From Sympetrum striolatum (taxonomy: Eukaryota > Arthropoda > Insecta > Odonata > Libellulidae), in contig OX388346.1 in NCBI GenBank assembly GCA_947579665.1, positions 91,018,615-91,082,614 of the forward strand: DNA of 64,000 bases, written 5' to 3'. Below, piece by piece: positions 12,201 through 64,000 of the stretch. The translations under genes and the position numbers were made by a program. The notes beneath the pieces are model-generated. The model saw only the letters and a program-made list of their open reading frames with translations. It was not told the DNA's origin and made no database searches. Every line of letters starts with the position of its first letter. Position 1 is the stretch's first letter.

Positions 12201-15200
12201 CAAAGATGATTTATTACAAGTGAATTTATTGAAATGTAAGAGCGATATTGCTTATTTGACAGATTTATACCACAAATTTAATGAAACAAACCTACAACTG
12301 CAAGGGAATGATTTGAATTTGATCAAAGCCAAGGCAATTATATCTGCGTATCTGTCAAAACTTGCTTTGTACAAACAAAATTTGGGTGGAACACAATTTC
12401 ATCAGTTTCCAAATCTTTCTTCAATGGAAACTAATGATAACAACATTCTCGCTTACTGTCAGCATTTGGAAGCACTAAAAGAGGATTTTACAATTAGATT
12501 TGAGGATTTACTCAATATGGTCATTCCAGATTGGGTCATAGAACCATCCTCTAACTTAGAAATCAAAGGATTATCACTGCAGGAGGAGTTTATTGAATTG
12601 TCAACAAATGGAAAGTTGAAATTTAAATTTAAAAATAGGTATCAAGAATTTTGGCTTCAACGTCAATTTCCAATATTATATCCAGCCTTATGGGCTGCAG
12701 TAAAGAAATTTTTCGTTGCTTTTACGTCCTCGTTTTAGCAGAAAGAGGGTTTAGCATGGTGACCAATCTATTAACTAAGAAAAGGAACAGGTTGTCAATA
12801 GTAGAAACCAGTGACTGAAGGTTATTAATGATAAAAATGGCACCAAATATTGATAAATTAGCTTCATCACATCAAGCTCAGCTGTCTCATTAATAATATT
12901 ATATAAAGGTTTAATAGCATATTTTAATCGTACCGTAAAAAATACTTCAATATTTCATTATCTTAAGATTAAAGAAAATTAAAAATTTGTCCTTTGTTTT
13001 TCAATATATAGCATTTGCAATGTAGTTAACCTAAGGGGGGCGCTATCAAATAATTGACTGAAAAAGTGGGTGCTGAATCAAAAAAGGTTGGGAACCTATG
13101 ATATGAACAATACAAATCCATATTTGTGTGCCAAAGTTCATAACTTCCTGGGGCAGAGGAGCGTTAACCCTTAAACTGCGGGAAACGTATAAAAACGTTT
13201 TCCTGCCAGAATGCGAGAACTGCGGGAAAAACGTTCTTATACGTTTGACCTGCTCTTCCTTGCCCATGCTTGGCCTTCCTCAATTTTATGGCGGTGCCTG
13301 TAAATGAGACGCACCCTCACAAAATCTTTTGCATTGTCCTAAATGTGGAAAACCCTTCCCCAGGGTTTTCCAGCCTCTGCGTAATTCCAAGATTTGTGGT
13401 ACACTCGTAATTTCATATTTTCCTCACTCGTTAAAAATAAATGTATCTACTAACTGTTTGGTATCAAATTAATCAGCTAACAGCAAGGGAAAAAATAAGA
13501 CAATTTAATCATTGGCAATTGCTTCCACGTTAGAGGAGCAACCAAAAGTCTTGAACAATAACCGCTGACCGTGGGCATCGGAAGAAGGTCTACCCGGATT
13601 ATGGGGGTTTCCTGCCTGCTGCGAATAGTCTGACCCACCAAGAGAAGGGACCGTTTCTGTAACTTGCCTCCCACACACGACTGTCGCCAAAGAAAAATAC
13701 TCCCGCATCTTAAGGGTTAACGGAGGTTGGAGGCAACAAATATAAACATTTTAATTTATTTTGAACCATAGTTAGCATCACTTTGCAGATATTCACTAAC
13801 AATGTAATAGATTGTAGTTTATTTGTAGGATGGCATACACATTATTTTGTCAATTCAAGTACTGGTCAATATAATTTTAAATTAGTATTTACTATTAATT
13901 TGTTATCAATGTTTACAGTATAATTTACTAATTCATTGAAGCACTGGATGACTTCCAATATGATATAACTTCAAACTAAGCTGTTGCCTAACATAACATT
14001 AAACAAAAACTTATTGTAAATAGATATAATCTTACAAATGGCACTAATCAACTCAGATTTATTTTAAATGACATAAACGCACATTGTTGAAACCCATTGT
14101 ACATTAATATTATTTTTAAATAAAACTCTGTGAAAAAAGTACCATTTGTGAGGTTATTTCCATTCTGGATTTCCACCATACTTAGCCCACTTCTGGAAGC
14201 TTTACTACGCATTGCATAATTCATTAGTATCAGCAATTTCCCATTATAACCGATGATTTTCACATTGTAAATATGTGAATTAATACACCTTTCACTACTG
14301 TAGTAAGTAAAAGACTAACTGAGATTGTATTTTGGTTAAAGGATAAATATTATATATTTATATAACAGGAACGGATCTAGAGAAAAATTTTGGGGGGGAT
14401 CCGATCAAAAATTTTAAAATAAAAGACATTTCGGCTTTCACAAAACGTGACGTTAGAATTGTGTTAGACAAATTCGAGTATTTTCGCTAGTGATTGCTTA
14501 TTAAATTGTGTGTTTATTTGCGTTATTTGAGTTTCATTTTCCAAAAATAGGCACAAGTGATATTTCGGGGGGGGTCCGGACCCCCAGGACCACCCCCCTG
14601 GATCCGTCCCTGTTATATTATTATAAACACAACCCCATCTTATACATAAATGGGGATGATAAAACTTTTATCAATAATCAAAGACTCAAACAAGAAAGGA
14701 TACTTGCTGAAAGAGATCTTCCATTTGTTCTTGAAGCAACTTCTTCGAGGACAAAAGGTGTTACATCTTTACCATGGATACCAAGACCTCTTGCTTCTGA
14801 CAAAGCTTCTTGGATAATCTTTTCAATATCAGTATTCTCTTCATTTACTGTTCCATCTGGAGGTGGGGGTACAGCTATAAGGATCCCATTTCCCAAATCA
14901 ATGGATAGAGATTTATATATCAGCATAGCAGCTTCCTTTGCAGTAGAGACATTGTAAGGAGCCAAAAGAGGTCTTCCATCATCATCAAAAGCTTTGGGAG
15001 AAAAGAAAGAAGGAAATTCACGACTTTCTCCAAAGGTTGCCACACATACTCCCTGAGTTTCCTGAAAAATAATAACATTCATATTACTTTACGAGTAAAA
15101 TGTAGCTTGCATACTGCAAGCAGATCGACAACACTAATTTCATGTCGGCATCATATCGGAACATTCAAAAGAAAAAAAAGCATTGAAAATATTCCTAAAA

Positions 15201-18200
15201 TCCGCTGTAATTTAATCGTCTGGCATCAAACCCGAGTCTTCCTGGTGATACTTCCTATGCAGCACAACATAAGATAACCATCTCTAACTATATGTGAAAG
15301 TTCAAGCAGAAATATTGGCTGCAACTGCCTCAAACAACGTCTAACTTTTCACATATGTTCCTTATGTAAGAAATTGTAATGTGCTCTAGCATCGAACCCA
15401 GGAAGAGCATGGTCTTATCGAAATTTTTTTCTTAAACCAAGTCTTAATATACATCTTCTAGCAAAGCAAGAACTTCCTATTATTTCGATAAATACATCAA
15501 AATAAATAATGAAAGCTAACTCAATGCATGTTAAATGGGGGATATATTTACCGTCTGGCTTCGAACCCGGGTCATTTGTTGATACTTCCTATGTAACACA
15601 ATAGAAGATCACCATCTCTAACCATGTGTGAAAATTCAAGCAGAAATATTGGGTGCAACTGCCTCAAACGACGTCCTACTTTTCCCATGTATTCCTTGTG
15701 AGAGAAAATTTAATGTGCTCTGGCATCGAACCCAGGAACAGTACGGTCTTATGTAAATTTTTTTCAAAACCCTATGCTTAATATACATCTTCCATATAAG
15801 CAAGAATTTCCTATCATTTCGATAAGTGCATGAATAAAAATAATGAAAAACTACCTCAATGTATTTTAAACGGCCGATTTTTGCATCGTCATAGCATCAA
15901 ACCAAGGATATTTTCCCTAAAAGTCATTTATGTTTTCAATAGATCATGACCATATACATAGGCTTCTTGAGTTTTGATTCTCTACCTATCCAGGAAGTGT
16001 TTTTTAAAAGTTCCTGAAAATCAAAGCAAATGGGAAAAATCGGGACTTAGGGGCCCTCTGGCATCTAACCCATGACACTGAGGTTCAAAATCACAATTTT
16101 TCTGGCGCTTACATGTTATGGCCAATACATTGTAAAAATTTCAACTCAATCACGCTTGTGGTATAGGCTGTGAATTTGTATCCTATCTATCTATCCATAT
16201 ATATATAGATGTGTACATGAATGAATCCGGAGAAGCATCTATATATAATAGATAATCAATGAAGAACTATTACAAAATAAAATGAACTAATATACTATAT
16301 TTGCACTTCTTTTTCTTTTTGGAAGGTATAGTTATCATAAATATGTATTTATAAATGAAACCTTCAATAAAGAAGCATTGCTAAGAGTCAATCTTTTACA
16401 TGTATTATTAGATAAATTTACAAAATAATGCTAAAAATATCAACAACATTATAAAATTACTAAAGACTGACTGTGATAGCAAGTGTAGCTGAAAACCAAA
16501 GGATAAAAAGCAAAAATGGTCAACATGTATGGAACACATACTGGTCTTCCATTTGCCACATTGGTGCCCCAACCGCTTAACTACCATGTGAAACTTGTTT
16601 AACAGACAATTGAATCAGAATGTACCTTCACTAAAACAAAACAAAGTTCTTTGTGATTGTATGGACTTAATCAGTCCACCAGTATTTCTATGGAATATTG
16701 TAATTTTGTGCAATTAACTGTATGGATAGAGAAACAACATATTTAGAGGGACTTGCAAAAATAGGCATTTCATTAAGATATAAGACACATTCAGCCTCAA
16801 TTTTATAAAGCATATTTCTCAGCATAAAAAACTCAATAAATAACTTCTAAGGCTTTTTCTCTTACATTATTTCTTAATTCTCAGAGCACAAGGCTATGTC
16901 ACTTGTATGAAATCCATTTAAATTATATTTAATGTGATTATGGATGTATTATAGTTCAGACCAATATAATAACACCCTAAAGGATATTAATAAGATATTT
17001 TCCGATAAAAATCTAGAACTCTGAGAACTGAACAAAACTTTATCAAATAAAATTATGAATAACAGCATAAAGTAAGCTTACTCTGCGACAACAGTAAAAT
17101 ATAATATAATAAAATACAAAAAATGAATAATGGGGAAAAAAACTTTTGCTAAAATGACATTTGTATTTGCTAACAGGATTGCAAAGCATCAAACACATTA
17201 TGCAAACTTGAACGGCAGTTTACTCTTCCAAAGGAGATATAAATAATCTCTTATCGCTTTCTTGCAAAACCTACCAAATACTCAAGAGTTTTTGCAACAT
17301 CAAGAATAGATTTCACTCCACTTGATACAACTGCCAACGGCGTTCTTCCGAGTTCATTCAAATCGGCGCTGATGTCCATGGTGTCATTTACTCCTCGATG
17401 AACACCTCCAATTCCTCCTGTTCGTGCAATACAACATCCGATTGAAAATTTCCAGAAATGTGCAGATTAGAAATTAATAATAATACTAATATCCAAAATA
17501 CTTCCCCAAACTTTTAGCATTAAAAGATACACTCAGGCTTAACAATTTTATGATATGATTCTCTCCACTGTAGTGAAAGATGAAAAAAATAGAAATAATT
17601 TACATTGATAAAAAGACACGCCAAAGAATACATGATAGAGGAATGTGCAAATGATTTTAAAGTTAGTATACTATAATAAAGCGAAGCGGCTGCTGATGGT
17701 TATGTTATATGTAAAAAAAAACAACTCCAAAACCATCAAAAAACTTGCAAAGCGGCTAAACGTATTTCGACTTCCACAAAGTCATCCTCAGACTAAGGTC
17801 GGCAAAGAAATGCCTCAAAAAAATTTTTTTATGTATTAGTATGCTATGCTTAAGAATATAAATACCTGTAACAAATACATTTATTCCAGCCATCTTTGCA
17901 GCAATCATTGTAGCAGAGACCGTCGTTCCACCACTTAATCCCTAAAATATGATATATTGAGGAGGGCATGAGAGAAAGTCATACTGAGAAAAATTATTAA
18001 ATACATACAAATTTCCTTTAACTTTAAAATTCAATAGATGGAATAACTGGATTTGGCAAAGGGGCTGATGAAGGTCATTTGGTGGTAAATAATGAGAAAT
18101 GAAAGGTAGATAATGAATTAAATTAAATGAAAATGAATAAAAAATTAAAATTGATCCTAAAATAATCAGCTCCTATCTATAGTTAAGACAGAAGCAGAAA

Positions 18201-21075: not shown

Positions 21076-21925
21076 TCTATAAAACCACTGGTAATCCAGA
21101 TGATTACACAAATTTCTCCAGACTTCGAGTCATGCGTAAGAGTCTTACTAGGTTGTGCTATCATAATTACCTTAACTTGATTCAAAAAAATATTCTTGTT
21201 AACTCAAAGCAATTTTGGTCTTATGTCAATAATCTGCGTGGATCTAACAAAGTTCCCAATGTAATGCATCACAATGGTATTAATTATAATAATGGACAGG
21301 ATGCATGTAATCAGTTTGCTGATTTCTTTTCTAAAGTTTACACAAACTATACCCTAGATGATATACCTCAACATAACTTTAAATCTAGTATTGATATTAA
21401 CAATATGAGAATCACAACAAATGAGATTATGAATAAACTAAATTCTCTCGATGTTCACAAAAGTCCAGGTCCTGATAATATATCTCCTTTACTGTTATGG
21501 AAGTGTGGTGAAGCATTGTTGTATCCTATCCTGTCGTACCTATCTTTAAGAGTGGTGATAGACAATATATGTAATTATAGGCCAATTGTTATTCAGCCTG
21601 TTCAGGCTAAAGTTCTGGAGAGTATTCTTCCTGATAAACTTTCTCCTGCTCTTAACAGAATCCTAATCAGTGAGCAACATGGCTTTACTAATGGCAAAAA
21701 TCTACAAGCACTAATCTTTTATCATTTCATAATTTTATATCTCATGCTCTGGAACATCATAGGCAGGTTGATACAGTTTATACTGACTTTTCTAAAGCAT
21801 TTGGCAAAGTCAATCATCAGATACTATTGTCTAAATTGCAAGCATATGGTGTATTTGGGAATGCTTTAACAGTTACCTTGCTAACAGAAAATTGTTAGTT
21901 AAGCTGGACAACTATATTTCCTACC
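21076..21925 (+). pseudogene. Non-LTR reverse transcriptase fragment (CR1/Jockey-like)
   Basis: The homologous frame begins before the ATG at 21132 (KTTGNPDDYTNFSRLRV) and includes the pre-RT segment SKQFWSYVNNLRG and the RT motif LDVHKSPGPDNISPLLLW. It then skips from ILSYLSL to NYRPIV (an internal deletion), continues EQHGFTNGK, and shifts frame to VDTVYTDFSKAFGKVNHQIL at about 21766-21825 and NSYLANRKLLVKLDNYISYQ. The FSKAF motif has Gly instead of the usual Asp after it. It is cut off at 21925 by a tandem-motif element end. Both LINE ends and the catalytic YADD are absent. Confidence 0.8.
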
Positions 21926-22163
21926 AGTAAAATGTTGCTGGCATACTGCAAGCAGATCGACAACACTAATTTCATATTGGCATCATATAGGGACGGTCCT
22001 CAGAAGAAAAAAAAATGATTGAAAATATTCTTAAAATTCGCTGCAATTTCCTGATTATACTTACTATGCAGCACAACAGAAGTTCACCGTCTCTAACTGT
22101 GTGTGAGAATTCAAGCAGAAATATTGGCTGCAACTGCCTCAAACGATGTACTTTTCCACAATA
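21926..22163 (+). mobile_element. Tandem-motif element, one end only
   Basis: Begins CAGTAAAATGTTGCTGGCAT, the hairpin end of the family found at 53846-64000, and keeps the first 240 bp up to CTGCCTCAAACGATG; the remaining monomers are missing. Its junction is directly on the LINE fragment. Confidence 0.75.
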
Positions 22164-33609: not shown

Positions 33610-33742
33610 ACAGACATCATTCCGAAAATGGTTAAAACGTATTCTAGGGACCCCAAAACATGTATTTCCGTTGAAATCTCGAAGTCGAATTTTTTCATGA
33701 AAACAATACTTTCTCTACACTTCGTATATGGAGAAAGTAAAA
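32697..33742 (+). repeat. MITE-like element with internal 315-bp tandem units, copy 2
   Basis: Homologous to 8860-9877 over its full length, from AATCTGATGTGGCCAGCAC to ATATGGAGAAAGTAAAAA. Unit starts at about 32915, 33231 and 33546 keep the same 315-bp period. The (CA)n tract is longer and purer here (33562-33604), which fits microsatellite growth at a shared site. Confidence 0.78.
33562..33604 (+). repeat. (CA)n microsatellite
   Basis: About 20 CA units inside copy 2 of the 315-bp-unit element. The corresponding site in copy 1 is short and impure. Confidence 0.95.
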
Positions 33743-44373: not shown

Positions 44374-46602
44374 ATGGAAATTGATGAGGCGGTGCAGGAT
44401 TTAGACAAAAATGCGCCAAACAGACCCACGGGAAGGGCAAGATCACTCAGTTGCCCCGATGAGGCATTTCTATTTAAAAAATAATTAAAAATGCCGATGC
44501 CGATGCAGCGGGACAACCATCGGCGAACATCTCCGAAAAACAATTTATTACAAATCCGAGCCAACCCAAAGATATTTTGAACTCCAATAAATTTAATATT
44601 GAGAAAGAGCCATTAATTACAACTGAAAAATCCAAGGTCGGTACCTCGCGATCAGCAGCGGTTTCGGAACGCGAGATATCTAATTTAACGAGCCAGGCGG
44701 TAGAAGGCCGGCGTCCCAAAAGAGGGGTGGGTCGGGGGCTAAGGTTGACAACGGGTCCGAAGACCTAGAAACAAGAGTTAAAAGCAAACCAAGAAAGAAT
44801 AAAGACTCTCCATCGACAGTTGTCGATGACACGAGAGCAAGTAAAAGAGAAAATCAAATCGGCCGATGTTCGCGGAGTCCTTCGATGAGGCGATCTCGCG
44901 GCCCAATTTAACATTTACAAAGGACAATTTTCCACAGAAAATGAGGATATCGGTGTTTTCCCCGCTACGCCTCCCCTACCGTTACCCACCGAGCCCAGGC
45001 CGGCGGGAGCGAGTCTACTTTCATCTAAAAATCATTCATTTAATTATTCCCCCCGAGATGAGGCGATTGCGCTCGGGTCAAAGCGGTCAGATCTAGACAT
45101 TAAGGGTTCAAATCGCGGGGGCATCGACCGGTCGTCGGGGTCAAAGCCGAGGCAGGCGACGGCTTCCCGCGATCCCCCCCTACCCCCAAAGCGCCCCCCC
45201 AAACTGATTGTAATTACTTAAAAAAAGGTAAGGAGGTCAGCGTAAGGGGTGGAATGAATCCCCCTCCTGGCATAATATTAGATGTAAGAGGGGGAAATCC
45301 CTCCCAAATCATTCAGCATAAGAATCAGGACTCGGTGGGCCAGGACGAGTGGCATCTGATCCCGGGGGAGGCAACGCGCGGAGGCATCGACACCTCCAGC
45401 CGAAATTAATTTGAGAAATCGATACTCCCCACTTGTTGGGAGCGAGGCCGCCTCTCGAGGGAACCCGGGCTCATCGGCTGAAAAGACTTCCAAAGGGGAC
45501 GGAAAAATTTCGCCAATCCTACTACAAAAACCCACAAATTGGGTCGAATTATATAAAAAGAAGGAAGAGGTTTGCATCTTTCCCCCGGTCGCCCAACTTG
45601 CGGAACGTCGTACGTCGGTAAAATGTTTTACCGTTAAAGACTTCCATGCTTTAAAAGAATTATTCAATAATTTAAATATAAACTACCCTACCTACCGCCT
45701 GGTGGCTGAAAAACGGAGAATTTACGTGATTAGAAATTTACCCGATAATGTATCAGTTGATGACATTAAAGAATCGCTCGCCAATCAAGGGGTGCCGACC
45801 GAAAACATTTATCAGCTAAAAACCACGAGACCCACAAAGGCTCAATTAAAGGAGGGGCAAAAAACAGTTTCGCCGAAATTGCTCCCGCTATATACGGTCG
45901 ACTTGGCAGGTACAGCCAATTTAGATGAATTTTTAAGTATAAGGTATGTTTGTGGCATTAAAATAGTAATCGAAAAACATAAGCCGCCAAACGGGCCGCC
46001 TCAATGTAGAAGATGTCAGGCCTTTGGTAAATATTGATAAATCTTGCAACATGCCGCCGCGCTTCGTTAAATATGGTAAAAATCACTTAACAATAGATTG
46101 CAAAAAACCGGCAACGGAAAAAGCAGTATGTGCGGTTTGTGGAGGCGAACATCCAGCTAGTTACAGGGGATGCGACGCTTATAAAAAAATAAAAGAGCGG
46201 CTAAATGCACTCAAAAACAAAGCTAGAACCACAAACAAGGAGTATCTTAGTCGTATTCCGCCGCCGACACCGGCCGGCATCTCGGCCAATCAAATCGGAC
46301 TGAGTTATGCGGCCGCTGTTTCGAGCGTCCCTTTAAGAGGAGGTGAAAAAGCTTCAGGAATTTTTCTCCCTCCGCCGCCGCATGACCCTCGAATCGAAAG
46401 TATTGTTATGCCAAAGGCCGCGCCGAATAATAAACAAATAAATTTTACTCCCGACCAATCATTTAAAGGAAATAATTCCTGCCGCGGCGTGGATCACGCT
46501 CTAATTAATGATGATGATATAATTAATGATAATGAATCTATAGACGATCCCGACGAAGGAAAGTATGCGAAAATGGATTTCTACGATGGCGTTATTAATT
46601 CT
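44374..46602 (+). pseudogene. LINE B ORF1 (gag-like, zinc knuckles)
   Basis: Starts MEIDEAVQDLDKNAP. After a low-complexity, charged region with several frameshifts, the conserved part lies at about 45520-46190: NWVELYKKKEE, a PRE_C2HC-type domain (RIYVIRNLPDNVSVDDIKES), then zinc knuckles CRRCQAFG (frameshift near 46030) CNMPPRF, CAVCGGEHPASYRGC. One knuckle Cys pair has changed (RFVKYGK instead of RCVKCGK). ORF1 proteins bind element RNA. The longest clean pieces are 45411-46037 and 46024-46605. Confidence 0.82.
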
Positions 46603-46667
46603 TAGACCTAACCTAACGAAAAGAGATTTTATTTCATACGCCATAAATTCTACAAATTTGATTTTAG

Positions 46668-48000
46668 ATGGCCAAGACGCTTAAAGTGATGGAATGGAAC
46701 GCAAATGGTTTCGTCCAAAGATTGGACGAGTTAATCAATTTCCTATTTAAACATAGAATCAGCATCGCCCTAATAAACGAGACTCATTTGTCTCCACAAA
46801 TTGTAATAGATATCCCTGGATATACAATTTTTAGAGACGATGAAATAAAAAATCGGAGACATAGGGGTACCGAAATTGTTGTGGAAAAAAGGCTGAATGC
46901 CAATAAAATTAAATTACCAAAATATCATAATTTACGATCCACAGGAGTATAAATAATGGGAGGAAGGGGAAATATAAATTTCATTTCAGCCTACAACCCG
47001 CCTGGTGAGAACCTTTATGTTAATGATCTAAGAAAAATTTTTAAACAATTCAAGAATACTTTCACGATAATTGGGGGGGATTTAAATGCGAAAAATGTCA
47101 ATTGGGGGAGTAGAAAGAATAATCCAGCAGGAACTAAGCTTCAAACATTTATTAATAATTGTAACTATATGGTTCATCCAGGATACGAATATACACATCT
47201 AGTCACCGGTCATCCCGAGAGCGACGATGTCCTAGATATATTTATTACGAGTTTTAAATGTTGCAACTTTAAAATCGACGTAAAAAACGAGTTAACTTCT
47301 GATCACCTTCCGCTTATTTTATACTAACCAAGGGACGCTGATCTGGACGAAGCTTTTAATTTTAAAATACCCAAATGGGTTAATTTTAAGCTAATTTTAG
47401 ATAATTTATTAAATAATTTTAATTACGAAACGACGAATGACGTCAAATCCATCGAAAAAAAGGTTATAAATTTCAGCGATTGCTGCTTTGATTGCTTTCA
47501 AAGATTGCCTCCCAACCATGTCAGATTACCAAAAGAAATTTTACTTTTAATCAATCAAAGAAATCGCGAACGGAAAAGAGCGCAAAAAACGGGCTGTGTG
47601 GCGGCGATGGCAAACTATAAAAAGTTAAAAGTACAAATTCAAAAATAAATCAAAAACTTTTTAAAACTAGAAAATGTTTTTAATAATGAAATCGAAAGTC
47701 GTGATACGGCGATGCCAAATAAAAATAGGAATAAAGAATTATGGAAAAAAGTCAGCGAAATAACAGGGAAAAAAAGGGCCTTAACAAATAATATTATACA
47801 TGAAGGAACAGAAATATCGGAGGATTTTAAGAAATGCGAAATTTTGAAAGACTATTTATTTGAACAGTATAAGCCTTTCGCCGCCACCTCAAGGCCGTCG
47901 GTCGACATGGTTGAGGAGGAAATCGAAAGTTTCTCCTTCGCTCCGAACTCGCGACCTTGCCGAGCCTCCCTCCCCGAACTAAAAAGTTTTTTCAAAAAAA
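46668..48000 (+). pseudogene. LINE B ORF2: APE-type endonuclease, RT deleted
   Basis: MAKTLKVMEWNANG, INETHL (catalytic Glu), SAYNPPG, IIGGDLNAKNVNWGS, and SDHLP (catalytic His) cover the complete endonuclease, broken by one in-frame TAA at 46950. The post-endonuclease part continues in shifted frames, including KVSEITGKKRALTNNIIHEG and LPELKSFFKK, which should lead into the RT. At about 47990 it passes into AT-rich non-coding sequence, so no RT motif is present. Confidence 0.82.
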
Positions 48001-48914: not shown

Positions 48915-49560
48915 TCCCTCACTCTTACCCACCCTATACCCCACACTCTACCCTACCACCCTCTGCCCCACCATCTCCCCTACCACCCTCTGCCCCACCC
49001 TCTCCCCTACCACCCTCTGCCCCACCCTCTCCCCTACCACCCTCTGCCCCACCCTCTCCCGTCCCACCCTCTGCCCCACCCTCTACCGTCCCACCCTCTA
49101 CCCCACCCTCTCCCGTCCCACCCTCTGCCCCACCCTCTCCCGTCCCACCCTCTCCCCTACCACCCTCTGCCCCACCCTCTCCCGTCCCACCCTCTCCCCT
49201 ACCACCCTCTGCCCCACCCTCTCCCGTCCCACCCTCTCCCGTCCCACCCTCTGCCCCACCCTCTCCCCTACCACCCTCTCCCCTACCACCCTCTGCCCCA
49301 CCCTCTACCGTCCCACCCTCTCCCGTCCCACCCTCTGCCCCACCCACCCCTATCCCATCATACCCTCTACTCCACCCACTCCCGGCCCACTCTCTACCCC
49401 ACCCTCTACGCGAACGCCCTCTACCCCAACCCACTACCGTCCCACCCTCTACCCAACCTATATCCATCCCGCCCCCTACCCCACCCACTCCCATGCATGC
49501 CCCTTCCCCACCCATTCCCATGCAGGGCGCTACCCCACCCACTCACGTCCCAACCACACT
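48915..49560. repeat. C-rich minisatellite
   Basis: Irregular tandem array of 13-15-bp C-rich units (variants of CCCACCCTCTCCCGT and CTACCACCCTCTGCC), often grouped in 27-bp pairs; it becomes more degenerate after 49340. The strand is almost free of G for 600 bp. ORFs spanning it (Pro/Leu/His-rich on plus, Gly/Glu-rich on minus) are open in several frames only because the repeat lacks stop codons. Confidence 0.93.
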
Positions 49561-52894: not shown

Positions 52895-53845
52895 CTATCA
52901 TTTATTGCAAGGTTAATTACTCATTCTAAAGGAAAACTTAAGAACAGATTAAAATTAACTGATTCCAGATATATCAAGTATTTGTCACCAAGAATCCTGA
53001 GCTCTAAAAAACTACTTGAGTTTGTCAGATTGCCTCGCTGTCAATGGTGAAATAATGGCATTTGAAAATTAAGTTGCAAGAGAAGTAGGAAGATTAACTG
53101 GATTACTCACAAATAAAGTCACAGTCAGGAATTTTGGATACTACATACACCTGTAGAAAAAATACAAGAATCAAAATCAGGTATTCTTTAAAAGTGTAAA
53201 TTATATTCTCACTTTTCAACATAATTGGCTAAAAGTTTACGTTTATTCTTATCAAACTGAACTTCATCTCCTTTTAATATTTTCGAATTACATATCTGCA
53301 AATAGAAACGTCCTTAAAATCGTTCAGTGAAATGTAAAAAACGTTCAACCATTTCTATTTAATTGTGGTTATCTGAATAATAATCACTAGTCCAATAATT
53401 CATGAGAAGTAGAGAATAAAAACAAAACTAATTTTAGTTTTAATTCGCAATCGAAATTATTTTTCTTGTTTGGTGCTAAAGTGCAAAAACTTTGTATCAA
53501 GAACACAACCATCATCTGAATATTGTCTAATTGCAATTAAATTTTAAAGGCAGTATTTAATAAACTCTCAGAAATACCGCCAAAGCTACTTTTATATACA
53601 AGGATTTATAATGATTTTGATTGGTTAAATATGGATTATATAGCTTACTGATTGGGAACTTTGTATAAGAGAGTGGAATTCAAACGAAAGGAATTAGATC
53701 AGATATTTTGTAACTTGTCATTCTTGTATATCACACCACTCCAAGGTAACAGATGTTGGGAGTCCTATATACCGAAAGAAATATCACAGGGCATAACTAT
53801 TATATATAGACGCTTCTCCGGATATACTTATATATATATATATAT
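52895..53845. other. No gene recognised
   Basis: AT-rich sequence leading to the repeat cluster. At 53808-53833 TAGACGCTTCTCCGGATA is an isolated, inverted piece of the cluster's terminal motif. Confidence 0.5.
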
Positions 53846-54995
53846 ACGAGTAAAATGTTGCTTGCATACTGCAAGCAGATCGACAACACTAATTTCATAT
53901 CGGCATCATATCGGGACGGACATCAAAAGAAAAAAAAATTCAAAATATTCGTAGAATTCGCTGCAATTAAATCGCCTGGCAGCGAACCCCGGTCTTCCTG
54001 GTGTACTTACTATGCCGCAAAATAGAAGATTACCATATCAAACTATGTGTGAAAATTCAAGCAAAACTATTAGGTGCAACTACCTCAAACGACGTCCTAC
54101 TATTCACATACACTCCTTATTTGAGAAATTATAATGTGCTCTGGCATCGAACCCAGGAACAGCATGGTCTTTTCTATTTTTTTTCTTAAACAAAGTGTTA
54201 ATATACATCTTCCATCTAAGCAAGAGCTCCCTTACATATCGATAAATGCATAAAAAAATTATGAAAAGATACCCCATAGTATTATATATGGGGGATATTT
54301 TTACCGCCCGGCATCGAACCCGGGTCTTTCAGGCAATACTTTCTCTGCAGCACAACAGAAAAACACCATCTCTAACCACGTATGCAAATTCAAGCAGAAA
54401 TATTGGTTACAACTGCCTCAAATGACGTCCTACTTTTCCTTTATATTCCTTATGAGAGTAACGTTATTGTGCTCTGGCTTCGAACCCAGTAACAGTACGG
54501 TCTTATGAAAATTGTTTTCTAAAACTTATTCGTACCATACATCTTCCAGCAAAGCACGAACATCCTATCATTTCGATAAGTGCATCTAAAAAAATAATGA
54601 AAAACGGCTCCCATGTATTTTAAAGGGCAGATCTTTGCATCGTCCTAGCATCGAACCCAGGATAACTTTTGTAAAAGTCATTAATGTTTTCGAAAGTCCA
54701 AGACCATAAATATAGGCACCTTGAGTTTTACTTCTCTACCTATCCGGAAAGTATTTTTTTTTAATTCCCGAAAATCACGGCAATGCATTCAAACGGGAAA
54801 AATCGGGACTTTGGGGCCCTCTGGAATCGAACCTATGACACTGAGGATCAAAGTCTCTTTTTTCCTGGGGGTTTCACGTTATGGCCAATATGTCATAAAA
54901 ATTTCAGATCAATGACGCTTGTAGTTTAGGCTGTGAATTTGTATCCTATCTATCTATATAGGTATATATATGAATGAATCCGGAGAAGCATCTAT
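53846..54995 (+). mobile_element. Tandem-motif element E1
   Basis: First of nine neighbouring copies. It starts ACGAGTAAAATGTTGCTTGC with the hairpin end and finishes TATCCTATCTATC and GAATGAATCCGGAGAAGC. CGA of the conserved CGAACC motif at 53983, 54148, 54315, 54481, 54653, 54828 (steps 165, 167, 166, 172, 175). Nearly identical to E4, displaced by exactly 3392 bp at all six motifs. Confidence 0.9.
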
Positions 54996-55039
54996 ATATA
55001 ATAGATATATATACACTGGGGATCAAAAGTCTAAGCATG

Positions 55040-56094
55040 TTCCACAAGTGCCACCGACTTGAAATTTTTACGACATATTGGCCATAACGTGTAACCTCCA
55101 GGAAAAAGCCAACATTGAACCTCGGTGCCATGGGTTCGATTCCAGAAGGCCCCAAAGTCGCGATTTTCCCCATAAGATTACATGGCGGGGATTTTCGAAA
55201 ATTTTTTTGAGGCACTTCCCGGAAAGGTAGAGAGTTGAAACTCGAGGGACATCTAAATGCCGTGCATAGCCAACGAAAATCGGAAAGACATCTTCGAATA
55301 TTGTCCTTGGTTCGATGCTAGGCCGGGGCAAAAATCGGCCGTTTAAAATGCATTGCGGCGATTTTTAAGATTTTTTTTGGATCCTTTCCCGATAACATAG
55401 ATACTTGAAACTCGGAACGTCGATAGATATCATGAATTTATTTCATAATCGAACTTTACATATTAGCTTATGGTCCTTGGTTCGATCCCAGAGGACCATT
55501 TGCACTTCACAATGCTTTTCTTACGGAGATAACGGAAACAAATTTTAGGTACTTCCCGGCACGATATCGACTTCAAACTTTGCATGTAGAAAGATCAAGT
55601 CCATACAAATCAAACAGTGCATTCACAGCTATCAAAGTGTCCTGGGTTCGACACCAGGTGTCTCTGCAATCAGAAGTTGATCCGATTTTTAGGAATTATT
55701 TTAAAACCTTTGCCAATAATATAGAAACTTCAAATTCGGCATATAGATAGAGATCATAAATAACTTTCAGAAAAATTTTTTAGATTTCCAAGATCGTCCT
55801 TGGTTCGAATCCAGAGAGCCATTTAATTCGTGAAAATTAGAACGTCTTTTGAGGCAGTTGTAGCCCATATTTCTGCTTGAATTTTCATACATCGTTAGAG
55901 ATGGTGATGTTCTATTGTGCTGCATAGTGAGTTCACAGTAAAGACCCGGGTTCGATGCCAGACGATGGAATTTAGGCAAATTTTAAGAAAAATTTCAACC
56001 TTTTTTTTTTCTTTTGATGGCCGTCCGGATATGATGCCGACATGAAAATAGTGTTGTCGATCTGCTTGCAGTATGCAAGCAACATTTTACTCGT
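55040..56094 (-). mobile_element. Tandem-motif element E2 (inverted)
   Basis: Motif TTCGA/TTCGAT: TCG at 55136, 55312, 55482, 55648, 55805, 55952 (steps 176, 170, 166, 157, 147). This is the short-spacing subfamily. Ends with the hairpin GCTTGCAGTATGCAAGC and ATTTTACTCGT at 56094. Confidence 0.88.
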
Positions 56095-56132
56095 CTATTA
56101 TATATAGACGTTTCTCCGGATATCTATTATAT

Positions 56133-57215
56133 ACGAGTAAAATGTAGCTTGCATACTGCAAGCAGATCGGCAATACTAATTTCATATCGGCATCATATCG
56201 GGACGGTCCTCAAAAGAAAAACAAAGGATTTAATTATTTCTTAAAATTCGCTGAATTTTCATCGCCTGGCATCGAACTTGGGTCTTTCTGGTAAACCTAC
56301 TATGAAATACAATAGAAGATCACCATCTCTAACTATGTGTGAAAATTCAAGCAGAAATATTGGCTTCTACTGTCTCAAAAGACGTTCTAATGTTCACTAA
56401 TGTAAATGGCTCTCGGGACTCGAACCAAGGACGATCGTGGAAATCAAAACATGTTTCTGAAAGTTATTTATGATTTCTATCTATATGCCGAATTTCAAGT
56501 TTCAATATTAATGGGAAAGGTTTCAAAATAATTCCTAAAAATCGGATCAACTTCTGATTGCAGAGACACCTGGTGTCGAACCCAGGACATAATGTAAGCT
56601 GTGAATGCACTGATTGATTTGTAAAGACCTGATCTTGTATCTTACAAAGTCTGAAGTCGATAGCATGCCGGGAAGTACCTAAATTTTGTTTCCGTTATCT
56701 CCGTAAGAAATATATTGAGAAGTACAAATGGCCCTCTGGGATCGAACCAAGGACCATCAGCGAACATGTAAAATTCGATTATGTTCTATTTTTATGGTAT
56801 CCAACCTCATACTGAATTTCAAGTTTCTATGGCATCGGAAAAGGGTCCAAAAAAAATCTTCAAAATCGCCGCAATGCATTTTAAACGGCCGATTTTTGCC
56901 CCAACCTAGCATCGAACCATGGACAATATTCGAAGATGTCTTTTTGATTTTCGTTAGATATCCACGGCATCTAGCGATCCCTCGAATTTCAACTCTCTAC
57001 CTTTCCGGGAAGTGCCTAAAAAAATTTTTCGAAAATCTTCACCATGTATCCTTATGGAGAAAATCGGGACTTTGGGGCCTTCTGGAATCGAACCCATGAC
57101 ACTGAGGTTCAAAGTTGGCTTTTTCCTGGGGGTTTCACGTTATGGCCAATACGTCGTAAAAATTTCAAGGCATTGGCACTTGTAGTTTAGCCTGTGAATT
57201 TGTATCCTATCTATA
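56133..57215 (+). mobile_element. Tandem-motif element E3
   Basis: CGA of the motif at 56273, 56421, 56577, 56743, 56913, 57089 (steps 148, 156, 166, 170, 176), the mirror of E2. Followed by a repeated ATATAGCT microsatellite (57211-57236). Confidence 0.88.
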
Positions 57216-57236
57216 TAGCTATATAGCTATATAGCT

Positions 57237-58390
57237 ACGAGTAAAATGTAGCTTGCATACTGCAAGCAGATCGACAACACTAATTTCATATCGGCATCAT
57301 ATCGGGACGGACATCAAAAGAAAAAAAAAATTCAAAATATTCGTAGAATTCGCTGCAATTTAATCACCTGGCAGCGAACCCCGGTCTTCCTGGTGTACTT
57401 ACTATGCAGCAAAATAGAAAATTACCATATCAAACTATGTGTGAAAATTCAAGCAAAACTATTAGGTGCAACTACCTCAAACGACGTCCTACTATTCACA
57501 TACACTCCTTATTTGAGAAATTATAATGTGCTCTGGCATCGAACCCAGGAACAGCATGGTCTTATCTATTTTTTTTCTTAAACAAAGTGTTAATATACAT
57601 CTTCCATCTAAGCAAGAGCTCCCTTACAAATCGATAAATGCATAAAAAAATTATGATAAGATACCCCATAGTATTATATATGGGTGATATTTTTACCGCC
57701 CGGCATCGAACCCGGGTCTTTCAGGCAATACTTTCTATGCAGCACAAAAGAAAAACACCATCTCTAACCGCGTATGCAAATTCAAGCAGAAATATTGGTT
57801 ACAACTGCCTCAAATGACGTCCTACTTTTCCTTTATATTCCTTATGAGAGAAACGTTATTGTGCTCTGGCTTCGAACCCAGGAACAGTACGGTCTTATGA
57901 AAATTTTTTTCTAAAACTTATTCGTACCATACATCTTCCAGCCAATCACGAACATCCTATCATTTCGATAAGTGCATCTAAAAAAATAATGAAAAACGGC
58001 TCCCATGTATTTTAAAGGGCAGATCTTTGCATCGTCCTAGCATCGAACCCAGGATAACTTTTGTAAAAGTCATTGATGTTTTCGAAAGTCCAAGACCATA
58101 AATATAGGCACCTTGAGTTTTACTTCTCTACCTATCCGGAAAGTATTTTTTTTTAATTCCCGAAAATCACGGCAATGCATTCAAACGGGAAAAATCGGGA
58201 CTTTGGGGCCCTCTGGAATCGAACCTATGACACTGAGGATCAAAGTCTCTTTTTTCCTGGGGGTTTCACGTTATGGCCAATATGTCATAAAAATTTCAGA
58301 TCAATGACGCTTGTAGTTTAGGCTGTGAATTTGTATCCTATCTATCTATCTATATAGGTATATATATGAATGAATCCGGAGAAGCATCTA
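57237..58390 (+). mobile_element. Tandem-motif element E4
   Basis: CGA at 57375, 57540, 57707, 57873, 58044, 58220. Almost base-for-base E1, which indicates recent duplication or gene conversion. Confidence 0.9.
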
Positions 58391-58398
58391 TATCTATT

Positions 58399-59485
58399 AC
58401 GAGTAAAATGCAGCTTGCATACTGCAAGCAGATCGGCAATACTAATTTCATATCGGCATCACATCGGGACGGTCCTCATAAGAAAAAAAAGGATTTAATT
58501 TTTTCTTAAAATTCGCTGAAATTTCATCGTGTTGCATCGAACCCGGGTCTTACTGGAAAACCTACTATGAAACACAATAGAAGATCACCATCTCTAACTA
58601 TGTGTGAAAATTCAAGCAGAAATATTGGCTACAACTGCCTCAAAAAACGTTCTAATTTTTACGAATTTAAATAGCTCTCTGGACTCGAACCAAGGACGAT
58701 CTTGGAAATTTAAAAAATATTTCTGAAAGTTATTATTGATTTCAATCTATATGCCATATTTCAAGTTTCTATATTATTGGGAAAGGTTTCAAAATAATTT
58801 CTAAAAATCGGATCAACTTCTGATTCCAGAGACACCTGGTGTCGAACCCAGGAGACATTGATAGCTATGAATGCATAGTTTGATTTGTTAAGACTGGTTC
58901 TTCTATCATGCTAAGTTTTAAGTCGATTGCATGCCGGGAAGTACCTAAAATTTGTTTCCGTTATCTCCGTAAGAAATGCATTGAGGAATATTAATGTCCC
59001 TCTGGGATCGAACCAAGGACCATCAGCGAATACGCAAAATTCGATTATGATATATTCTTATAGTATCTAACCTCATACCGAATTTCAAGTTTCCATGCCA
59101 TTGGAAAGGGGTCCAAAAAAAATCTTAAAAATCGCCACAATGCATTTTAAACGGCAGATTTTTGCATCGACCTAGCATCGAACCCAGGTTATTTTACGTA
59201 AAACGCATTTATGTTTTCGATAGATAATGACCATATATATAGGCTCCTTGAGTTTTAATTCTCTACCTATCCGGGAAGTATTTTTTTTTTAATTCCCGAA
59301 AATCAAAGCAATGCATTTAAACGGGAAAAATCGGGACTTTGGGGCCCTCTGGAATCGAACCCATGACACTGAGGTTCAAAATCGCAATTTTTCTGGAGGT
59401 TATACGTTATGGCCAATATGTCGTAAAAATTTCAAGCCATTGACGCTAGTGGTTTAGCCTGTGACTTTGTATCCTCTCTATATAT
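58399..59485 (+). mobile_element. Tandem-motif element E5
   Basis: CGA at 58538, 58685, 58843, 59009, 59179, 59356 (steps 147, 158, 166, 170, 177), short-spacing subfamily. Followed by a (TA)n tract at 59480-59500. Confidence 0.88.
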
Positions 59486-59512
59486 ATATATATATATATA
59501 TGAATATATGAT

Positions 59513-60590
59513 ACGAGTAAAATGTTGCTTGCATACTGCAAGCAGATCGGCAACACTATTTTCATGTCGGCATCATATCCGGACGGCCATCAAAGGAAAA
59601 AAAAAGATTGAAATTTTTCTTAAAATTTGCCTAAATTCCATCGTCTGGCATCGAACCCGGGTCTTTACTGTGAACTTACTATGCAGCACAATAGAACATC
59701 ACCATCTCTAACGATGTGTGAAAATTCAAGCAGAAATATGGGCTACAACTGCCTCAAAAGACGTTCTAATTTTCATGAATTTAAATGGCTCTCTGGATTC
59801 GAACCAAGGACGATCATGGAAATCTAAAAAATGTTTCTGAAAGTTATTTATGATCTCTATCTATATGCCGAATTTCAAGTTTCTATATAATTGGGAAATG
59901 GTTCCAAAAAATTCTTAAAAATCGGATCATTTACTGATTGTAGAGACGCCTGGTGGTAAAACCAGGAAACATTGGTAGCTGTGAATTCACAGTTTGATTA
60001 GTAATGACTTGATCTTATCTTATGCAAAGTTTCAAGTAGATATAATATCGGGAAGCACCTAAAATGTGTTTCCGTAATCTCCATAAGAAATGCATTGAGG
60101 AATGTAAATGGCCCTCTGGGATCGAACCAAGGACCATAAGGGAATATGTAAAATTTGATTATGAAATATAATTATGATATCTAACGCCATGCCGAATTTC
60201 AAGTTTCTATGCCATCGGAAAAGGGTTCAAAAAAAAACTTAAAAATCGCCGCAATGCATTTTAAACGGCCGACATTTGCCCCGTCCTAGCATCGAACCTA
60301 GGATAATATTCGTAGATATCTTTATGGTTTTCTTTTGATATGGGAGGCATCTAGCGATCCCTTGAGTTTCAACTCTCTCCTTTTCCGGGAAGTGCCTCAA
60401 ATAAATTTTCGAAAATCCCCGCCATGTAATCTTATGGGGAAAATCGCGATTTTGGGGCCTTCTGGAATCGAACCCATGATACCGAGGATCAAAGTCGCTT
60501 TTTTCCTGGGGGTTTCACGTTATGGCCAATACGTGGTAAAAATTTCGAGTCAATGACGCAAGTAGTTTAGCCTGGGAATTAGTATCCTAT
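59513..60590 (+). mobile_element. Tandem-motif element E6
   Basis: CGA at 59652, 59800, 60123, 60293, 60469. The third monomer has lost the motif (GGTGGTAAAACCAGG near 59951). Short-spacing subfamily. Closest relative is E8 in inverted orientation, which shares the lost motif. Confidence 0.88.
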
Positions 60591-60622
60591 CTGGGTATCT
60601 GGGTATCTGGGTATCTGGGTAT
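60586..60622 (+). repeat. (GGTATCT)n microsatellite
   Basis: Four units of TATCTGG between E6 and the terminal motif. The reverse complement occurs at 61870-61898 between E7 and E8. Confidence 0.9.
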
Positions 60623-60664
60623 ATCATGAGTGAATCCGGAGAAGCATCTATATATAATAGATAT

Positions 60665-60725
60665 GAATGAATCCGGAGAAGCATCTATATATCTATTAAA
60701 TATAGATGCTTCTCCGGATTCATTC
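60665..60725. repeat. Inverted pair of the element terminal motif, 24-bp arms
   Basis: GAATGAATCCGGAGAAGCAT (60665-60688) is inverted perfectly at 60702-60725 around a 13-bp AT spacer. It marks the outward-facing junction between plus-oriented E6 and minus-oriented E7. Confidence 0.9.
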
Positions 60726-60753
60726 AAGGATATAGATAGATAGATAGATAGAT

Positions 60754-61861
60754 AGGATACTAATTCACAGCCTAAACTAGAAGCGTCATCGACTTGAAAT
60801 TTTTAAGACGTTATGGCCATGACGTGTAACCTCCAGGAAAAAGCCGACATTGAACCTCGGTGTCGTGGGTTCGATTTCAGAAGGCCCCAAAGTCCCGATT
60901 TTCTCCATAAGGATACATGGTGGCGATTTTCAAAAGTTTTTAAATAATACTTCCCGGACAGGTAGAGAATCGAAATTCAAGGAGCTTACAGATATGGTCA
61001 AGAACTATTATAAACTTTAATGATTACGAATGAGAACGTCCTGGGTTCGATGCTAGGACGATGCAAAAATCCCGCATTTAATATGCATGGGGATAGTTTT
61101 TCATTAATTTTTTTGATGCACTTACCGGAATGTAAGGAACTTTTCGCTAAGCTAGAAGATATATATTAAGAATCGGTTTAAGAAAAAAAATTTCTTAAGC
61201 CCGTACTATTCCTGGGTTCGATGCCAGAGCACATTAACATTTCTCTCATAAGGAATATAAGGGAAAAGTAGGACGTCGTTTGAGGCAGTTGCAGCAAATA
61301 TTTCTGCTCGAATTTTCACACATAGTTTGAGATAGTGATCTTCTATTATGTTGCATAGGAGGAATTACCAGAAAGATCCGGGTTCGATGCAGGGCGGCAA
61401 ATATGTCTCCCGTTTAGAATACATTGGTTTAGTATTTCACTATTTTTTTGAAGCACTTATCGAAATGGTAGGAAGTTCGTACTCGGCTGGAAGATGTACG
61501 AAAAGAATTGGTTTTAGAAAAAATTTAGATAACATCGTACTATTCCTGGGTTCGATGCCAGAGCACATTAGTATTTCTCTCATAAGGAATATAAGGGAAA
61601 CGTAGGACGTTGTTTGAGGCAGTTGCAGTTAATATTTCTACTTGAATTTTCACACATAGTTACAGATAGCTATCTTCTATGGTTCTGTATACTAAGTATG
61701 AACGGGAAGACCTGGGTTCGATGCCAAACGAATAAATTGCAGCGGAAATAAAGAATATTTTCCAACCCTTTTTTTTTCTTTTGAGGACTCACTCTATGTG
61801 ATGCCGACAAAAAACTTTTGTTGTCGAGGTGCTTGCAGTATGCAAGCAACATTTTACTCGT
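60754..61861 (-). mobile_element. Tandem-motif element E7 (inverted)
   Basis: TCG at 60871, 61047, 61218, 61384, 61549, 61718 (steps 176, 171, 166, 165, 169), long-spacing subfamily like E1. Hairpin end TTTTACTCG at 61861. Confidence 0.88.
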
Positions 61862-61896
61862 ATATAATAGATACCCAGATACCCAGATACCCAGAT

Positions 61897-62974
61897 AGGA
61901 TACTAATTCACAGGCTAAACTACTGACGTCATTAACTCGAAATTTTTACCACGTATTGGCCATAACGTGAAACCCCCAGGAAAAAAGCGACTTTGATCCT
62001 CGGGATCATGGGTTCGATTCCAGAAGGCCCCAAAGTCGCGATTTTCCCCATAAGATTACATGGCGGGGATTTTCGAAAATTTATTTGAGGCACTTCCCGG
62101 AAAAGGAGAGGGTTGAAACTCGAGGGATCGCTAGATGCCCCCCATATCAAAAGAAAACCATAAAGATATCTACGAATATTATCCTAGGTTCGATGCTAGG
62201 ACGGGGCAAAAGTCGGCCGTTTAAAATGCATTGCGGCGATTTTTAAGTTTTTTTTTGAACCCTCTTCCGATGACATAGAAACTTGAAATTCGGCATGGCG
62301 TTAGATATCATAATTATATTTCATAATCAAATTTTACATATTCCCTTATGGTCCTTGGTTCGATCCCAGAGGGCCATTTACATTCCTCAATGTATTTCTT
62401 ATGGAGATTACGGAAACACATTTTAGGTGCTTCCCGATATTATATCTACTTGAAACTTTGCATAAGATAAGATCAAGTCATTACTAATCAAACTGTGAAT
62501 TCACAGCTACCAATGTTTCCTGGTTTTACCACCAGGCGTCTCTACAATCAGTAAATGATCCGATTTTTAAGAATTTTTTGGAACCATTTCCCAATTATAT
62601 AGAAACTTGAAATTCGGCATATAGATAGAGATCATAAATAACTTTCAGAAACATTTTTTAGATTTCCAAGATCGTCCTTGGTTCGAATCCAGAGAGCCAT
62701 TTACATTCGTGATAATTAGAACGTCTTTTGAGGCAGTTGTAGCCAATATTTCTGCTTGAATTTTCACACATGGTTAGAGATGATGATCTTCTATTGTGCT
62801 GCATAGTTAGTTCACCAGTAAGACCCGGGTTCGATGCCAGACGATGAAATTTAAGCGAATTTTAAGAAAAATTTCAATCCTTTTTTTTTTCTTTTGAGGA
62901 GCGTTCCGATATGATGCCGATATGAAATAAGTATTGCCGATCTGCTTGCAGTATGCAAGCTACATTTTACTCGT
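61897..62974 (-). mobile_element. Tandem-motif element E8 (inverted)
   Basis: TCG at 62014, 62190, 62360, 62683, 62831. The position near 62526 reads TGGTTTTACCACCAGG, the same loss as in E6. Short-spacing subfamily. Confidence 0.88.
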
Positions 62975-63041
62975 ATATATATATATATATAGATGCTTCT
63001 CCGGATTCATTCATATATATATATAGATAGGTATATAGATA

Positions 63042-64000
63042 GGATACTAATTCACAGCCTTAACCACAAGCGTCATCGGCTTGAAATTTTTACGATATAT
63101 TGGCCATAGAGTATAACCGCCAGAAAAATTGTGATTTTGAACCTCAGTGTCATGGGTTCGATTCCAGAGGGCCCCAAATTCCCGATTTTTCCCATTTAAA
63201 TGCATTGCGTTGATTTTCGGGAATTTTTAAAAAATACTTCCCGGATAGGTAGGGAATTTAAACTCAAGGAGCCGATGGATGTAGTCAGGATCTATTGATA
63301 ACGTAAATGATCATCTCGGAAAAGGTCCTGAGTTCGATGCTAGGACGATGCAAAAATCGGCCGTTTAAAATACATTGAGGTAGTTTTTCACTATTTTTTT
63401 TGATATATTTATCGAAATCATAGGAAGTTTGTCCTTGGCTAGAAGATGTATGGTAACAAACGGTTTTAGAAAAAAATTTAGATAAGACCGTACTGTTCCT
63501 GGGTTCGATGCCAGAGCACATTAAAATTTCTCTCATAAGGAATATAAGGGAAAAGTAGGACGTCCTTTGAAGCAGTTGTACCCAATATTTTTGCTTGAAT
63601 TTTCACACATGTTTAAAGGTGGTGATCGTCTTTAATGTTGCATAGAAGGTATTACCAGAAAGACCCGGGTTCGAAGCCAGACGGTATATACATCCCCCAT
63701 TTATAATATATTGAGTTAGTTTTCATTATTTATTTTGTTGTACTTATCGAAATAATAGGAATTTCTTGCTTTGCTAGAAGATGGATATTAAGACTCGACT
63801 TAAGAAAAAAAATTAGATACGACAATGCTGTTCCTGGGTTCGATGCCAGAGCACATTAAAATTTCTCACATAAGGAATATATGTAAAAAGTAGGACGTCC
63901 TTTGAGGCAGTTGCAGCCAATATTTCTTCTTAAATGTTCGCACATATTAAGAGATTGTGATCTTCTGTTGTGCTGCGTAGTAAATTTACCAGAAAGACCG
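63042..64000 (-). mobile_element. Tandem-motif element E9 (inverted, cut by window edge)
   Basis: TCG at 63158, 63334, 63505, 63671, 63840 (steps 176, 171, 166, 169), long-spacing subfamily. The sixth motif and the hairpin end should lie just past 64000, since the window stops within AGAAAGACCG, the bases preceding the motif. Confidence 0.88.

What the first reader, a model, noticed from the sequence alone, without database searches (positions are those of the whole stretch)
53846..64000. Cluster of nine ~1.1-kb elements, each an ordered array of six ~147-177-bp monomers with a tRNA T-arm/B-box-like motif
About 50 copies of GGTTCGA(T/A)NCC lie in 10 kb. Spacing is element-specific and conserved: 176-171-166-165-169 in one subfamily and 176-170-166-157-148 in the other, in the same order in every copy. 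The sequence between motifs is homologous but far more diverged than the motif, so the motif seems selected or is the last shared core of an old tandem array. There is no coding potential. Two further copies lie at 15.1 and 21.9 kb, so the unit moves. I know no named transposon family with this architecture. Inference: B-box-like arrays could bind TFIIIC (insulator-like or Pol III-related), or be the internal repeats of a non-autonomous rolling-circle element.
Basis: partly seen in the sequence, partly recalled or inferred. Interest (0 to 1): 0.92.

Follow-up and report, generated by a model that had tools for sequence, protein, structure and literature searches.

The report
Helitron-like elements carrying B-box-like motif arrays
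The cluster is a nest of about 1.15-kb non-coding jumping elements with the ends of a rolling-circle transposon (Helitron), each carrying six evenly spaced copies of a short conserved motif that looks like part of a tRNA-gene promoter; the element type is known, while the conserved motif array is the unusual part.

Summary
Nine related elements lie in 53.8-64.0 kb (the ninth cut by the window end); a complete solo copy lies at 15092-16252 and a 233-bp 3' fragment at 21.9 kb. Ten elements give 59 motif slots in two fixed spacing patterns. The 17-bp core varies less than its surroundings between corresponding slots (8.5% against 15-27% mismatch) and far less between slots of one element (21% against 66-70%). 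The inter-motif DNA is not one monomer but two families with at best faint mutual similarity.
The ends identify the mobile unit: 5' TC, a 17-nt hairpin 9 nt before a 3' CTCG (CTGG in one copy), A before and T after. Removing three nested copies restores a 5' end that each had interrupted. This is the anatomy of a non-autonomous Helitron, except that CTCG breaks the CTRR rule in nine of ten ends; HINE/Helentron subterminal repeats were not found. The cluster arose by insertion into TA-rich 5' ends of earlier copies, plus duplication and recombination.
The motif has the B-box pattern of variable positions, but there is no A-box excess, tRNA match or stem covariation. TFIIIC binding is possible, not shown. 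Host and autonomous partner are unidentified.

The parts
15092..16252 (-). E0: complete solo copy, type A, TC...CTCG, flanked by A and T; ends 30 bp before the start of an Indigoidine_A exon
21924..22156 (-). 3' fragment with the hairpin and a CTGG end; no motif copy found in it
53797..53846 (+). 5' module and microsatellite of E2, cut off from its body by E1
   Evidence: flanks joined without E1
53847..55005 (-). E1: complete copy, type A, nested in the 5' microsatellite of E2
55006..56093 (+). E2: rest of microsatellite and body, type B, 3' end CTCG
56094..56133 (+). 5' module without an adjoining body, joined to the CTCG of E2 with no base between (CTCG then TC)
56134..57237 (-). E3: type B, no 5' module of its own at this place
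57238..58399 (-). E4: type A, body 1.6% from E1; 5' module at 58372-58388
58400..59513 (-). E5: type B body with type-A-like first part (recombinant); its 5' end is interrupted by E6 and E7 (pieces at 60662-60691 and about 61861-61871)
59514..60661 (-). E6: complete copy, type B, nested in the 5' microsatellite of E5; slot 4 motif core lost
60692..61860 (+). E7: complete copy, type A, nested in the 5' tip of E5 in the opposite orientation
61872..62973 (+). E8: type B body with (CCCAGATA)n microsatellite, body 3.7% from E6; slot 4 motif core lost
62974..64000 (+). E9: type A, head-to-tail behind E8, cut by the window end (five slots)
62944..62974 (+). example of the 3' terminal module: 17-nt hairpin GCTTGCAGTATGCAAGC, 9 nt, CTCG, then T; ten copies in the window
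62992..63008 (+). example of the 5' module core GATGCTTCTCCGGATTC; eight copies within 3 mismatches in the window (0.12 expected)
62007..62023 (+). example of the conserved 17-bp core (slot 1 of E8); 59 slots in all

Best explanation
The elements are non-autonomous Helitron-like rolling-circle transposons of about 1.15-1.17 kb, moved by a Rep/helicase from an autonomous partner not seen in the window. Each runs TC, TA-rich palindromic 5' module, microsatellite, six motif slots 147-177 bp apart, 17-nt hairpin, CTCG, and goes in between A and T in TA-rich DNA. Each copy carries such TA-rich DNA at its own 5' end, so later copies land inside earlier ones; this, with inverted duplication and recombination, built the cluster. 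Shown here: anatomy, ends, nesting and lower variation of the motif. Inferred: rolling-circle movement, the partner, and that the motif is a protein-binding DNA site that matters to the element (TFIIIC at a B-box is the leading candidate, about 20%).
For: 3' module with hairpin in ten copies, 0.00 expected; ten of ten 3' ends followed by T, nine CTCG and one CTGG; four of the five TC starts found by pattern are preceded by A, the fifth directly by a CTCG; removing E6, E1 and E7 joins flanks that align to intact 5' regions, and the last recovers one more TC tip preceded by A; no terminal inverted repeat in seven copies tested; the 17 columns of the hairpin are the only 17-column window without variation in the element alignment. 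Canonical Helitron ends as defined in PMC4067079: 5' TC, 3' CTRR, 16-20-nt palindrome about 11 bp from the 3' end, insertion between A and T, no duplication. Motif constraint.
Against: Nine of ten 3' ends are CTCG, which is not CTRR. The 5' tip of E2 reads AC, not TC. All four complete copies have TA on both sides, and the tip that E7 interrupts has a TA run 4 bp longer than intact tips, so a 2- or 4-bp duplication is not excluded. No Rep/helicase was seen among the 15 ORFs scanned with Pfam. No true empty site could be examined because no genome was available. For the motif: the pair E1/E4 shows no deficit and the singleton deficit in type A is not significant (p 0.16).
Confidence: 0.72

Rival explanations
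1. A HINE, the non-autonomous partner of a Helentron (endonuclease-bearing branch of the same rolling-circle superfamily).
For: [quoted passage not shown] 16, 27, 29 here).
Against: No subterminal inverted repeats between the two ends in seven copies tested (p 0.09 to 0.87; for E2 and E8 the 5' stretch tested was not the true 5' end). Flanks are A and T, not T runs.
Confidence: 0.15
2. A miniature DNA transposon with a TA target-site duplication and tandem repeats inside (MITE-like).
For: TA on both sides of four of four complete copies; inverted 5' modules follow the 3' ends of E1 and E3, looking like terminal inverted repeats; TA-microsatellite-targeting Mutator-like elements exist (PMC4486113, start of abstract).
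Against: E0 and the 21.9-kb fragment end at CTCG/CTGG with no inverted 5' module behind; the inverted module behind E1 is explained as the split 5' end of E2; no TIR.
Confidence: 0.08
3. About the motif, not the element: it has no present function and is only the last recognisable core of an old tandem array.
For: Copies still spread after losing one motif (slot 4 of E6 and E8), although E6 and E8 may be duplicates rather than separate insertions; E1/E4 shows no deficit; all copies in the window are dead-looking DNA with no tested function.
Against: Motif columns vary less between corresponding slots that diverged after the array formed: 21 of 102 against 359 of 994 (type A, p 0.0015) and 12 of 102 against 288 of 969 (type B, p 7e-5).
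Confidence: 0.3
4. A tRNA-derived (SINE-like) array or a set of Pol III transcription units.
For: Match to the B-box consensus (recalled), variable just at its two N positions; a run of four T follows within 90 nt in 52 of 59 slots, in AT-rich DNA.
Against: Best A-box score 20-75 bases upstream is no better than shuffled (mean 5.56 against 5.61 of 8; consensus recalled); no tRNA by ARAGORN and no tRNA among Rfam matches up to E 10 in the cluster; no covariation in the T-arm register.
Confidence: 0.04

Closest known systems
Canonical non-autonomous Helitrons (definition in PMC4067079, passages)
   Same: 5' TC, palindrome of 17 nt near the 3' end, A before and T after, no coding, head-to-tail neighbours (tandem arrays are reported there for bat and Bombyx Helitrons)
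   Different: 3' CTCG instead of CTRR in nine of ten ends; 5' microsatellite; central array of a conserved motif; partner not found
Cg_HINE elements of the Pacific oyster (PMC7492417, part of Results and Discussion)
   Same: Non-coding rolling-circle element with left flank, microsatellite, short array of units mostly 140-180 bp, right flank with palindrome
   Different: Those have 5' and 3' subTIRs and prefer TT; here no subTIR and A^T. Whether their units share the motif was not tested
Pearl elements of bivalves (as described in PMC7492417)
   Same: Up to six central repeats of about 160 bp
   Different: Sequences not available to compare
DINE-TR1 of Drosophila (title in the reference list of PMC12628747; rest recalled)
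   Same: Helitron-type element with internal tandem repeats
   Different: Sequences not compared
ETC sites, extra TFIIIC without Pol III (PMC11346459, passages)
   Same: The motif is B-box-like without an A-box
   Different: Here in arrays of six on a mobile element; no binding data

Membership tests
Canonical Helitron (non-autonomous) | 5' end TC preceded by A | tested here: met
   A|TC in E0, E1, E6, E7 and in E5's tip after joining flanks; one TC directly behind a CTCG; E2's tip reads AC; four tips not readable
Canonical Helitron (non-autonomous) | 3' end CTRR followed by T | tested here: inconclusive
   T follows in ten of ten; CTGG in one of ten, CTCG in nine of ten
Canonical Helitron (non-autonomous) | 16-20-nt palindrome about 11 bp from the 3' end | tested here: met
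   17 nt, 9 nt before CTCG, in ten of ten (one arm mismatch in the 21.9-kb fragment)
Canonical Helitron (non-autonomous) | No target-site duplication | tested here: inconclusive
   TA on both sides in four of four complete copies; TA-rich targets hide short duplications
Canonical Helitron (non-autonomous) | Autonomous Rep/helicase partner with the same ends | not tested
   The genome search unanswered; no such Pfam match among 15 window ORFs scanned
HINE / Helentron | 12-15-bp subterminal inverted repeats at both ends | tested here: not met
   Seven copies, p 0.09 to 0.87
HINE / Helentron | Insertion in T-rich (TT) DNA | tested here: not met
   A before, T after; TA-rich targets
HINE / Helentron | Palindrome near the 3' end, microsatellite | tested here: met
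Tandem-repeat-bearing rolling-circle element | Short array of satellite-sized units between conserved flanks | tested here: met
   units are of two families
Pol III type 2 promoter / tRNA-derived repeat | A-box upstream of the B-box | tested here: not met
   mean best score 5.56 against 5.61 in shuffles, 59 slots, 20-75 bases upstream
Pol III type 2 promoter / tRNA-derived repeat | B-box consensus | tested here: met
   (consensus recalled)
Pol III type 2 promoter / tRNA-derived repeat | T-arm stem kept by paired changes | tested here: not met
   67.9% cells paired against 67.0% in shuffles, 32 of 59 slots used
TFIIIC-bound (ETC) site | TFIIIC occupancy without Pol III | not testable with these tools
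   needs ChIP or gel shift

The most novel reading that the evidence does not exclude
A rolling-circle transposon that carries a fixed array of six TFIIIC-binding B-boxes at nucleosome-scale spacing, kept by selection although the DNA between them diverged or was replaced, so that every insertion plants a portable TFIIIC site (insulator-like or replication-related) in the host genome.
Probability: 0.12. Interest if true: 0.8.

Novelty: new variant of a known kind. Interest (0 to 1): 0.45.

Why it matters
Why many Helitrons and Helentrons carry short satellite-like arrays is an open question. Here the array keeps one short motif and its spacing while the DNA between has diverged or been replaced, which points to a protein-binding site as a reason for such arrays. 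If TFIIIC binds, rolling-circle transposons would spread B-box sites outside tRNA genes and SINEs. The nested copies also show how an element that carries its own preferred TA-rich target builds clusters.

Tried and rejected
HINE/Helentron membership was my first reading; I dropped it after the subTIR test failed and the A|TC...CTCG|T ends appeared. A reading with terminal inverted repeats, from the inverted 5' modules behind E1 and E3, was dropped because the two copies outside the cluster end at CTCG/CTGG and E1's module is the split 5' end of E2. A hairpin as the conserved thing: no covariation above shuffles in either register (70.8% against 70.8%; 67.9% against 67.0%; 32 of 59 slots, 28 distinct); both registers do pair more than most slid versions, as a structure drawn from the consensus would. 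A CENP-B-box-like pattern (recalled): no match printed by the script. Rfam: no match at gathering scores in the window; of 33 weaker matches in the cluster none is tRNA, all lie below their gathering scores, and most fall on the palindromic junctions near 56.1, 60.7 and 63.0 kb. Host identification: a GIY-YIG protein found two distant hits, the PRE_C2HC protein none. Scans of viral contigs and genome contigs for the 3' end or a motif stretch found nothing; by their descriptions these are viral and prokaryote collections, so this says little. Literature: nine searches; the one combining Helitron, tandem repeats, B box, tRNA and non-autonomous listed one review on another topic. Repbase and Dfam could not be searched, so the family may already be deposited there.
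Full report
What is there. The window is DNA of 30-47% GC in 2-kb steps with fragments of mobile elements (PRE_C2HC, endonuclease, DDE_Tnp_1_7, DDE_1 and GIY-YIG domains); that it is an animal, probably an arthropod, is my inference. In the last 10 kb nine related elements lie in both orientations: E1 -, E2 +, E3 to E6 -, E7 to E9 +. A tenth, E0, is complete and solitary at 15092-16252, and a 233-bp 3' fragment lies at 21924-22156.

Motif array. Ten elements give 59 slots; spacing is fixed by type, A (E0, E1, E4, E7, E9) or B (E2, E3, E5, E6, E8). The two types separate with full support in a tree of the element bodies. The conserved stretch is 17 bp, about CCTGGGTTCGATGCCAG. Between corresponding slots (eight of ten elements; the near-duplicates E4 and E8 left out) the mismatch is 100 of 1173 (8.5%) in the core, 27% upstream, 15% just downstream and 20% further down. 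Between slots of one element (all ten elements) it is 510 of 2465 (21%) against 66-70%, the latter close to unrelated DNA (ungapped comparison). As columns: type A, 21 of 102 motif columns vary against 359 of 994 others (p 0.0015); type B, 12 of 102 against 288 of 969 (p 7e-5). Changes seen in one copy only: type A 15 of 102 against 210 of 994 (p 0.16), type B 6 of 102 against 165 of 969 (p 0.0025). Recent pairs: E1/E4 1 of 102 against 17 of 999 (no deficit), E6/E8 0 of 102 against 40 of 971 (p 0.03). So constraint is supported, not beyond doubt.

Two kinds of spacer. Profiles of the inter-motif segments find each other within two groups: segments A1, A2, A4, B1 to B4, and segments A3, A5, B5. 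Between the groups only three profile comparisons scored above 5 bits (6.0, 6.7 and 7.8); these exceed the shuffled maxima of those profiles (3.1, 3.8, 6.3), so a very old common origin is not excluded, but there is no clear homology. Simple pairwise alignment agrees for most slot pairs (four elements). Type A also carries a duplication of segments 2-3 as 4-5 (101-135 bits). What the two groups plainly share is the motif and a spacing near 166 bp.

Ends and movement. All ten 3' ends in the window carry the hairpin GCTTGCAGTATGCAAGC (one arm mismatch in the 21.9-kb fragment), then 9 nt, then CTCG (nine) or CTGG (one), then T. Five TC starts were found by pattern: four preceded by A (E0, E1, E6, E7) and one directly by the CTCG of E2. 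E2's own tip reads AC. The copies with both ends measure 1161 (E0), 1159 (E1), 1148 (E6) and 1169 bp (E7), from the coordinates. With E6 removed, the flanks join into a 5' module, microsatellite and GGATAC start of E5, aligning to the intact one of E9 with 13 extra bases; with E1 removed they join into the 5' region of E2; with E7 removed they give a TC tip preceded by A, with a TA run 4 bp longer than intact tips. All eight 3' ends inside the cluster abut 5' modules or microsatellites of other copies, while both 3' ends outside it abut other DNA. So these are separate mobile units with precise ends that land in each other's TA-rich 5' ends. All four complete copies have TA on both sides, so a short duplication cannot be told from a TA-rich target.

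Cluster history. E1 and E4 differ by 1.6% and E6 and E8 by 3.7%, all other pairs by 12-39%. The inverted match of 59114-60616 to 63402-61869 at 92% shows duplication besides insertion. E5 is closest to type A copies over about the first 300 alignment columns and to type B behind that: a recombinant.

E0 in a gene. E0 ends 30 bases before the AG at which the Pfam Indigoidine_A match begins (residue 10 of the ORF at 14678-15088, minus strand), that is, probably in an intron just before the splice acceptor.

What the motif could be. Over 59 slots the two central T are invariant; G, G, C, G, A and the first C of the consensus stand at 54-58; the two positions that are N in the B-box (consensus recalled) are the most variable within GGTTCGANNC, at 45 and 35. 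This one-sided pattern suits a B-box better than a symmetric dimer site. But there is no A-box excess, no tRNA, and no covariation above shuffles in a T-arm or a CCTGG/CCAGG register. In slot 4 of E6 and E8 the inner letters are replaced while the CCTGG/CCAGG arms stay. A protein-binding DNA site is the best inference; TFIIIC is a candidate, not a result.

Known and new. PMC4067079 (outline and abstract, first part of Results, passages) gives the canonical Helitron ends and the HINE features. PMC7492417 (outline and abstract, first part of Results and of Discussion, insertion-site section) describes oyster HINEs with arrays of units mostly 140-180 bp and Pearl elements with up to six. PMC12628747 (passages) reviews arrays in Helitrons and tandem formation by rolling-circle replication. 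PMC11346459 (passages) gives the A/B-box spacing of 30-60 bp and ETC sites. Measured against these, this is a Helitron-like element of the tandem-repeat-bearing kind with CTCG ends and a conserved B-box-like motif as its own marks. The nine paper searches showed no such motif array in a Helitron in their listings; subscription papers, Repbase and Dfam were not searchable.

Noticed in passing
8834-9877 and 32681-33743: A second repeat family: two copies 88.7% identical over 1068 bp, each with two tandem units of about 316 bp and a CA microsatellite at one end.
   Followed up: partly
48929-49552: C-rich minisatellite (CCACCCTCTCCCCT-like units, periods 15-55) with strong GC skew.
   Followed up: no
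14678-15062 (-): Exon of an Indigoidine_A (pseudouridine-phosphate glycosidase type) gene with E0 30 bases before its start.
   Followed up: partly
788-1738 (+), 29181-29603 (-), 40985-42433 (-), 45360-47327 (+): Fragments of other mobile elements: GIY-YIG protein (Penelope-like by inference), DDE_1, DDE_Tnp_1_7 (piggyBac type by inference), PRE_C2HC and endonuclease of a non-LTR element.
   Followed up: no
59952-59962 and 62523-62533: Slot 4 of E6 and E8: motif core replaced by TTTTACCA-type letters while the CCTGG/CCAGG arms remain.
   Followed up: partly
58400-59513: E5 is an A/B recombinant with its switch at about alignment column 300.
   Followed up: partly
57211-57237, 60588-60622, 61869-61897: 8-bp microsatellites of different sequence, (CTATATAG)n and (TATCTGGG)n, occupy the same place in different copies.
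   Followed up: no
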